Part shown: piece after piece, positions 48,918 through 50,189 of the stretch
How positions within the stretch are numbered: the first letter of the stretch is position 1
Layout: every line of letters starts with the position of its first letter
Assembly (NCBI GenBank): GCA_030424595.1
Contig: JAUHWG010000031.1
Span: 1-64,000 of the forward strand
Source: Polyangia bacterium
GTDB taxonomy: Bacteria > Myxococcota_A > Polyangia > Nannocystales > Nannocystaceae
Length of the DNA stretch: 64,000 nt
Direction: 5' to 3'
The notes under the pieces: model-generated
Told to the model about the DNA's origin: nothing
The model's input: the letters and a program-made list of their open reading frames with translations, nothing else
Database searches by the model: none
Program-made: the position numbers and the translations under genes

Positions 48918-49412
48918 CCTGAAATAAGCGCTGCTGTGAGGCGTCCTAGACAACCCGCGTAGAGTCGTCAGTGACACGGGGTTTGCGCTTCGCGCTGTGT
49001 CCGTGTGGGTGAAGGCTCACCTCCTGCTTGACGACGGGCGGAGCTCGGAGGCTGTAGGCGGGCGGGCGAGGGGCGACGAGGCGGGTCCCTCGCGGACGCG
49101 GGTCCTCCCATGCCACGTGCTCGCCACGGGATAGGCTGGTCTGCTTGAAGAGACAGGGGACGCGTGTCTCCGCGCGAGGCACGGGTCCTCCCGCTGCGTC
49201 CCATCCGTCGCCCCTCGCTCGCCCGAGCAAGTCTTCCTGGGCTCCGCTGCCGGGTGCGTAGAGGACTCGCGAGTGCAGATGTTCTCTCGACACACGCTCG
49301 TCGAGTCTCTCGCGCACCTGATGAGCAACAACGCGCATCGCCGGTCGAACTTCGGTCGGTACCGAAGCCAGAGCGATCGAGAGCCTCCGAAACGCCTGTG
49401 AGAACACCGAGC
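48918..49412 (+). repeat. Left inverted arm of the element
   Basis: Pairs with 49702-50189 in inverted orientation; high identity in 49026-49130, weaker toward the inner end (GTGAGAACACCGAGC marks the last shared block). Confidence 0.88.
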
Positions 49413-49576
49413 ACGAAGCTGCCGCCGAGGAAGAGGTTGTAGACGTGGCTCAGGACGTGCGTCGATTCCTAGTAGCGGCGCTTGTTCTCGAAGACCTTCA
49501 CGCGGCCGTTGATCGAGCGCCGGAGCTTGAGGCGATCGATCGAGCCGCGAGCGTGAGCCCAGCGAAGGGGGTCACA
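49397..49576 (-). pseudogene. Broken coding remnant in the element, possibly transposase
   Basis: On the minus strand a frame reads CDPLRWAHARGS, LKLRRSINGRVKVFENKRRY, an amber stop (49469-49471), then STHVLSHVYNLFLGGSFVLG in the same frame. It is coding-like but interrupted. Its place between terminal inverted repeats suggests the remains of a transposase; the motif resembles transposase text I have seen, but the family cannot be fixed without a search. Confidence 0.35.
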
Positions 49577-49701
49577 GGAGCCGGGTCGACGACCAACTCT
49601 ACCGCCGGAGGCTCGAAGCTCTTGCACTTCGGTCAAGCGCTTGCCTGTGGGCTACGTTCTTGCCGACGGTCGGCCTTGAGATGACTCGCGCGAGTTGTCC
49701 C

Positions 49702-50189
49702 GCTCGGTGTTCTCACTGGGACCTCGGAGGCTCGCGCTCGCTTGGACTTCGACACGGACCGAAGTTCGGCCGACGATGCGCGTTGCTCATCATCGTCGAG
49801 AGTCTCGACGAGCACGTATCGAGCGAAGACCTACGCGAGCAAGCGATCCACGTACCCGCAAGCGGAGCGCCGACAGACTCGCTCGGGCGAGCGAGGGGCG
49901 ACGGGTGGGACGCAGCGGGAGGACCCGTGCCTCGCGCGGAGACACGCGTACCTGTCTCTTCAAGCAGCTCAGCTTGACCCGTGGCGAGCACGTGGCATGG
50001 GAGGACCCGCGTCCGCGAGGGACCCGCCTCGTCGCCCCTCGCCCGCCCGCCTTCAGCCTCCGAGCTCCGCCCGTCGTCAAGCGAGAGGTGAGCGCTCACC
50101 CGCACAGATACGGTCGAAGCGCGAAACCCGTCTCATCAGGGGTTCTACGCTGGCTCGTGATGGCACCTCACACCAGCGCTTATTTCAGG
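49702..50189 (-). repeat. Right inverted arm of the element
   Basis: Counterpart of the left arm, ending in the 16-bp terminal inverted repeat at 50174-50189. The two arms differ by small indels, which argues for long residence after duplication. Confidence 0.88.

What the first reader, a model, noticed from the sequence alone, without database searches (positions are those of the whole stretch)
48918..50189. Long-armed inverted-repeat element with exact target duplication in a tandem array
Terminal 16-bp inverted repeats, arms of about 490 bp in opposite orientation, a 105-bp core with one mismatch and a CCTAGT duplication show insertion into a 14-bp array. Removing the element and one CCTAGT restores the array exactly. 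Its RNA or single strand would fold into a very long hairpin. No intact transposase, so it depends on another element. A broken coding remnant sits in the centre.
Basis: partly seen in the sequence, partly recalled or inferred. Interest (0 to 1): 0.7.

Follow-up and report, generated by a model that had tools for sequence, protein, structure and literature searches.

The report
Foldback transposon derived from IS1380
This is one copy of a jumping-DNA family present dozens of times in this bacterium's genome; it has lost its own transposase gene, its two halves are near mirror images, and it lands almost only in CTAG sites, so it is an unusually long-armed member of a known kind of genetic parasite.

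Summary
The array alone leaves CCTAGT ambiguous, but the family settles it: 125 CTAG-anchored ends in the genome (control 0), 109 of 113 ends flanked by CTAG, and exact 6-bp NCTAGN duplications in 14 of 26 pairs (3.6 expected).

The central remnant is the decayed N-terminus of an IS1380-family transposase; longer copies keep more, and a C-terminal piece lies beside the same end elsewhere. No intact copy is assembled in this genome. A same-family relative carries a 1,849-bp IS1380 element with near-identical ends, NCTAGN duplications and an open transposase frame. So this is a non-autonomous, foldback-type IS1380 derivative, probably moved in trans.

By-products: a ~166-nt hairpin in each arm that also occurs without these ends in related genomes and covaries (19 of 55 pairs), and a second CTAG-flanked repeat family (302 ends) often adjacent to this one.

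Verdict: new variant of a known kind; moderate interest.

The parts
48840..48917 (.). 14-bp tandem array (CTCCTAGTCCGGGG)n, left part; the target, one CTAG per unit
   Evidence: TRF row 48840-48919, period 14, 100% matches
48912..48917 (.). target-site duplication CCTAGT, left copy (NCTAGN)
48918..48933 (+). left terminal inverted repeat CCTGAAATAAGCGCTG
48918..49412 (+). left arm (about 495 bp), inverted copy of the right arm, 81% identical to it
49059..49225 (+). ~166-nt inner hairpin module, left copy (also found without these ends in related genomes)
   Evidence: (I7)
49397..49715 (-). core: decayed N-terminal fragment of an IS1380-family transposase, with frameshifts and stops
   Evidence: longer homologous copies
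49702..50189 (-). right arm; borders the N-terminal end of the transposase fragment
49882..50048 (-). ~166-nt inner hairpin module, right copy
   Evidence: (I8)
50174..50189 (-). right terminal inverted repeat CAGCGCTTATTTCAGG
50190..50195 (.). target-site duplication CCTAGT, right copy
50196..50213 (.). remainder of the 14-bp array

Best explanation
A non-autonomous, foldback-type derivative of an IS1380-family insertion sequence (a long-armed MITE). Its terminal inverted repeats are the ends that the transposase recognises. An IS1380-family transposase supplied in trans moves the element into CTAG sites and the insertion duplicates 6 bp (NCTAGN). The inverted arms arose when the element's 5' leader (TIR plus captured host repeat) was duplicated in inverted orientation in place of the rest of the transposase gene, leaving only a short N-terminal fragment; this structure then amplified as a unit to dozens of copies. 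Shown: shared ends, NCTAGN duplications, IS1380 remnants inside the family, a C-terminal remnant beside the same end in this genome, and intact IS1380 elements with matching ends and target in a genome of the same bacterial family. Inferred: mobilisation in trans, the inverted-duplication step, and that the autonomous helper is now lost or unassembled here.
For: Ends: 61+64 CTAG-anchored ends, control 0. TSD: 14/26 exact hexamers vs 3.6 expected, none of 20,000 shuffles as high. CTAG flanks 109/113 ends, although CTAG is rare in the window (57 sites, about 189 expected from base composition). Core matches NF033539 transpos_IS1380 weakly, E 0.0029. Longer copies at C50:30834-31220 and C17:77776-78162 match residues 22-151 at E 2e-18 and 4e-18; the C-terminal piece C32:214763-215089 matches 310-418 at E 6e-22 and lies about 250 bp from a CTAG-flanked CCTGAAATAAGCGCTG end. 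Relative with an open frame in G008 (L165:1235-3083, 1,849 bp; transposase 240 bits, cut-off 180): ends CCTGAAGTAAGCGCG and CCAAAAATAAGCGCG, TSD GCTAGC/GCTAGC; a sister copy (L212) has ACTAGC/ACTAGC. Its transposase is 55% identical to the C32 fragment and 35-37% to the L102/L068/L075 fragments. IS1380 elements of genus g12 also have NCTAGN duplications (GCTAGC, ACTAGT) with other TIRs.
Against: The NF033539 match of the window copy alone is weak and was made on a hand-joined reading of two frames through stops. No intact helper is assembled in this genome, so current mobility is not shown. Twelve of 26 pairs lack a perfect hexamer, which needs later mutation or recombination between copies. 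A known IS1380 element, IS1247, is reported with a 5-bp duplication (PMC3281130), so 6-bp NCTAGN is atypical for the family.
Confidence: 0.88

Rival explanations
1. An IS481-family derivative: IS481 and ISRe46-type elements are the known users of NCTAGN hexanucleotide duplications.
For: The NCTAGN 6-bp duplication is the reported signature of IS481 (PMC3053399) and of the ISRe46-driven TnRErm46 (PMC6794481).
Against: TIRs begin CCTGAAAT, not TGT as in the ISRe46 repeat; the only IS481-profile hit in the genome is one 36-bit match, below cut-off, on contig C54 and not beside a known end; the coding remnants are IS1380; IS1380 elements of the same bacterial family carry near-identical ends and the same target.
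Confidence: 0.03
2. A structured-RNA or DNA-hairpin element kept for a host function (transcription termination, RNA stability), with transposition only its past route of spread.
For: The inner ~166-nt hairpin covaries across four genomes: 19 of 55 pairs change on both sides, versus at most 4 in slid controls, 96.1% of cells paired, and it occurs without these ends in g12 genomes. The whole element folds at -1014.7 kcal/mol.
Against: Covariation was shown for the module only, not for the element. Copies range from 51 bp to 4 kb with the same ends, and the short ones cannot hold the module, so the ends rather than the hairpin are the constant feature. Halves of palindromic repeats can acquire paired changes by gene conversion. 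No Rfam family matched.
Confidence: 0.1
3. The arms are two separate insertions of a shorter element in opposite orientation (a composite), rather than one foldback unit.
For: The family also has short forms with the same ends (51, 166, 192-193, 236, 323, 485 bp) and many one-ended copies.
Against: No CTAG-flanked internal ends are seen between the arms of full-length copies; 17 full-length copies besides the window share the arm-core-arm order with one pair of outer ends.
Confidence: 0.06
4. Array artefact: the CCTAGT repeats are only the 14-bp periodicity, and the element arose by recombination or misassembly.
For: Every array unit contains CCTAGT; many contigs of this assembly end inside copies of the element.
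Against: Other copies sit outside arrays with matching NCTAGN hexamers of differing N (ACTAGC, TCTAGC, GCTAGT, ACTAGG), and the same architecture occurs on many contigs.
Confidence: 0.01

Closest known systems
IS1380 insertion-sequence family (NF033539 / PF13701)
   Same: Transposase remnants; TIRs of about 16 bp beginning CC; family members with open frames and near-identical ends in a genome of the same bacterial family.
   Different: No functional transposase; ~490-bp inverted arms; the duplication is 6-bp NCTAGN, whereas IS1247 of the family is listed with a 5-bp DR (PMC3281130).
Bacterial MITEs, e.g. TIMEs (Tn3-derived; PMC4133298)
   Same: Non-autonomous, TIR-bounded, derived from a defective parent, thought to be moved in trans; mosaic forms.
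   Different: MITEs are described there as about 30-300 bp; the full-length form here is 1.27-1.6 kb with arms of ~490 bp, and the parent is IS1380.
Eukaryotic foldback transposons (e.g. Tetris, Galileo; titles found, papers not read)
   Same: Very long inverted arms around a short middle (own knowledge).
   Different: Eukaryotic hosts and other transposase superfamilies; resemblance in architecture only.
IS481 / ISRe46 elements
   Same: NCTAGN hexanucleotide target duplication (PMC3053399, PMC6794481).
   Different: Different TIR and transposase family; apparently an independent use of the same target.

Membership tests
IS1380-derived non-autonomous element | Transposase of the IS1380 family, or a remnant of it, between the ends | tested here: met
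   NF033539 matches inside longer copies at E 2e-18 and 4e-18, PF13701; the window copy itself only E 0.0029
IS1380-derived non-autonomous element | Terminal inverted repeats shared with an IS1380 element that has an open transposase frame | tested here: met
   G008 copies L165, L211, L212: CCTGAAGTAAGCGCG / CCAAAAATAAGCGYG vs CCTGAAATAAGCGCTG
IS1380-derived non-autonomous element | Target duplication of the length usual for the family (4-5 bp from memory; 5 bp for IS1247, PMC3281130) | tested here: not met
   6-bp NCTAGN here; but IS1380 elements with intact frames in the same bacterial family also show 6-bp NCTAGN, so it looks like a clade trait; the claim made is 'derived from these IS1380 elements', which it fits
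IS1380-derived non-autonomous element | Mobilised by an IS1380 transposase in trans | not testable with these tools
   needs a transposition assay
MITE | TIR-bounded, multicopy, target duplication, no functional transposase | tested here: met
   no intact transposase
MITE | Short size (about 30-300 bp) | tested here: not met
   full-length form 1,266-1,594 bp; only some short forms (51-236 bp) fall in the range
IS481-family element | IS481 transposase and TGT-starting TIR | tested here: not met
   (one weak hit below cut-off); TIR is CCTGAAAT
Foldback element (architecture) | Long inverted arms covering most of the element around a short middle | tested here: met
   arms ~490 bp each of 1,272 bp, 81% identical

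The most novel reading that the evidence does not exclude
The ~166-nt covarying hairpin carried in both arms is a functional structured RNA or DNA element of this myxobacterial family, present as interspersed repeats in several genera, and an IS1380 foldback element has captured and multiplied it.
Probability: 0.2. Interest if true: 0.6.

Novelty: new variant of a known kind. Interest (0 to 1): 0.4.

Why it matters
Long-armed foldback elements are familiar in eukaryotes; I found no description of one derived from IS1380, or of any in myxobacteria, in the open papers searched (absence from that library is weak evidence). The family ties IS1380 transposases to a strict CTAG target, shows two CTAG-flanked repeat families stacking beside each other, and explains many of this assembly's breaks. 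The covarying hairpin is a testable candidate for a conserved structure.

Tried and rejected
Rfam scan of the element: no match at E up to 1. IS481 hypothesis from the NCTAGN duplication: rejected. A 4-bp CTAG-only duplication: rejected because the outer bases also match between sides more often than in shuffles (positions 1 and 6, P 5e-5 and 0.006). Insertion into terminator-like palindromes: the palindromic look of many flanks was partly due to a neighbouring second MITE-like family; 5 of 27 sites have at least 8/14 complementary flank bases vs 14 of 443 other CTAG sites, suggestive only. The 4.1-kb copy L094 as the autonomous parent: rejected, it holds a Y2_Tnp (IS91-like) fragment and unrelated ORFs. 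Apparent homologue of the core in G020 (L138): taken as a chance match among other reading frames. G024 IS1380 (L170): its assembled side does not show these ends. Plasmid collection: no relevant match to the core. Arm identity at positions 350-500 of the 1,354-1,360-bp class is not interpreted, because one arm there carries an insertion that upsets the fixed-length alignment.

Full report
The observation. The element at 48918-50189 is as described: identical 16-bp termini, inverted arms of about 490 bp aligned at 411/507 columns, a 105-bp stretch with one mismatch, and CCTAGT on both sides within a (CTCCTAGTCCGGGG)n array that is restored exactly on removal. As RNA it folds into one long hairpin of -1014.7 kcal/mol, which follows from the inverted repeat.

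It is a family. The window lies on contig C30 of a 9.5-Mb, 65-contig genome (relatives found by protein are uncultured Myxococcales). A search with the element gives 131 aligned pieces, including about ten near-full-length copies at 89-95% identity and many partial ones. The end CCTGAAATAAGCGCTG occurs 86+84 times with up to 3 mismatches against 18+25 for the reversed control, and the CTAG-anchored pattern 61+64 times against 0+0. I fetched 86 regions around these places and found 27 elements with both ends: 51 bp to 4,088 bp, the full-length class being 1,266-1,594 bp. Full-length copies are up to 96.7% and at the median 94.8% identical. Many contigs end inside copies, so copy number is a lower bound.

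The target. 109 of 113 examined ends are flanked directly by CTAG. The two flanking hexamers are identical in 14 of 26 pairs (3.6 expected; none of 20,000 shuffles reached it), and both outer bases match above expectation. So the duplication is 6 bp, NCTAGN. CTAG is scarce here (57 sites in the window, about 189 expected from base composition). The 14-bp array offers a CTAG in every unit, which would explain an insertion there (inference).

The parent. Read on the minus strand, the core contains stops and frameshifts but resembles the N-terminus of IS1380 transposases (NF033539, E 0.0029). The claim does not rest on that alone: the 1,593/1,594-bp copies L102 and L068 keep more of the gene and match NF033539 residues 22-151 at E 2e-18 and 4e-18, L075 matches at 1e-16, and a separate C-terminal fragment on C32 matches 310-418 at E 6e-22 and is followed about 250 bp later by a CTAG-flanked CCTGAAATAAGCGCTG end. 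No copy with a whole transposase is assembled in this genome. In a genome of the same bacterial family (G008), three copies of a 1,849/1,850-bp IS1380 element have ends CCTGAAGTAAGCGCG and CCAAAAATAAGCGYG and duplications GCTAGC/GCTAGC (two copies) and ACTAGC/ACTAGC; the L165 transposase is 55% identical to the C32 fragment and 35-37% to the L102/L068/L075 fragments. IS1380 elements in genus g12 have another TIR (CCGGATTTCTCACCAC) but the same NCTAGN duplication. I conclude that IS1380 elements of this bacterial family target CTAG with a 6-bp duplication and that the window element is a non-autonomous derivative of one. NCTAGN duplications were known from IS481-type elements (PMC3053399, PMC6794481); the IS481 alternative fails on transposase and ends.

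The arms. The transposase fragment begins at the right arm, and the left arm is an inverted copy of that leader. The simplest history is an inverted duplication of the 5' leader that replaced the rest of the gene, followed by amplification; the direct evidence is only the architecture, so this step is inferred. Between the arms of a copy, positions about 100-300 are the most alike and the subterminal 50-100 bp much less so. The alignment of full-length copies shows mosaic subterminal and inner segments, as expected from recombination between copies.

The inner hairpin. Element positions about 142-308 form a ~166-nt hairpin module present in both arms. Relatives at about 70-77% identity occur in genomes G023, G025 and G027 without the IS ends in the loci examined, and at C5:57331 of this genome in a tandem arrangement without a nearby end. 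Nine sequences give 55 pairs, 19 with changes on both sides, 96.1% of cells paired, covariation score 0.278 against 0.131 in shuffles and at most 0.108 when slid. The structure is conserved, but gene conversion between palindrome halves could also give paired changes and no transcript is known, so its function is left open.

A second family. 21 of 113 ends have, within 20 bp outside, the end CCGTGGCAAAAGTCCC of another ~150-bp CTAG-flanked inverted-repeat element (random control 0.155%), which has 143+159 ends in this genome against 1+1 in the control. Each insertion at CTAG leaves two CTAG sites, so such families can stack; this is an inference from the adjacency.

Verdict. The element is a new variant of a known kind: a long-armed, foldback-type non-autonomous derivative of IS1380. 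The architecture and target are interesting to a mobile-element specialist but do not overturn anything known.

Noticed in passing
G000 genome-wide; in the window 19242-19257 (-): A second MITE-like family, ~150 bp, ends CCGTGGCAAAAGTCCC flanked by CTAG, 143+159 ends vs control 1+1; often directly beside the first family.
   Followed up: partly
window 49059-49225 and 49882-50048; L031, L032, L033, L038, L041, L204: ~166-nt hairpin module with strong covariation, also interspersed without the IS ends in another genus of the family and in tandem at G000:C5:57331.
   Followed up: partly
L094:3344-7431 (G000:C43:99343-103430): 4.1-kb copy bounded by the same ends that carries a Y2_Tnp (IS91-like) fragment and three further ORFs of unknown function: possible cargo or nested insertion.
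   Followed up: partly
L112:6315-6493: Apparent chimera with ends of the second MITE-like family and interior from the arms of the first.
   Followed up: no
window 48840-48919: The 14-bp array starts at the stop codon of the 927-aa ORF 46063-48846: its TAG is the CTAG of the first unit.
   Followed up: no
G024 contigs C22, C76, C103, C176 and others: Ten CTAGNCCTGAAATAAGCGCAG ends, mostly within 60 bp of contig ends, suggesting a collapsed multicopy element with the same ends in that genome.
   Followed up: partly
L066:3150-3200: A 51-bp copy consisting almost only of the two inverted ends, the smallest form of the family.
   Followed up: no
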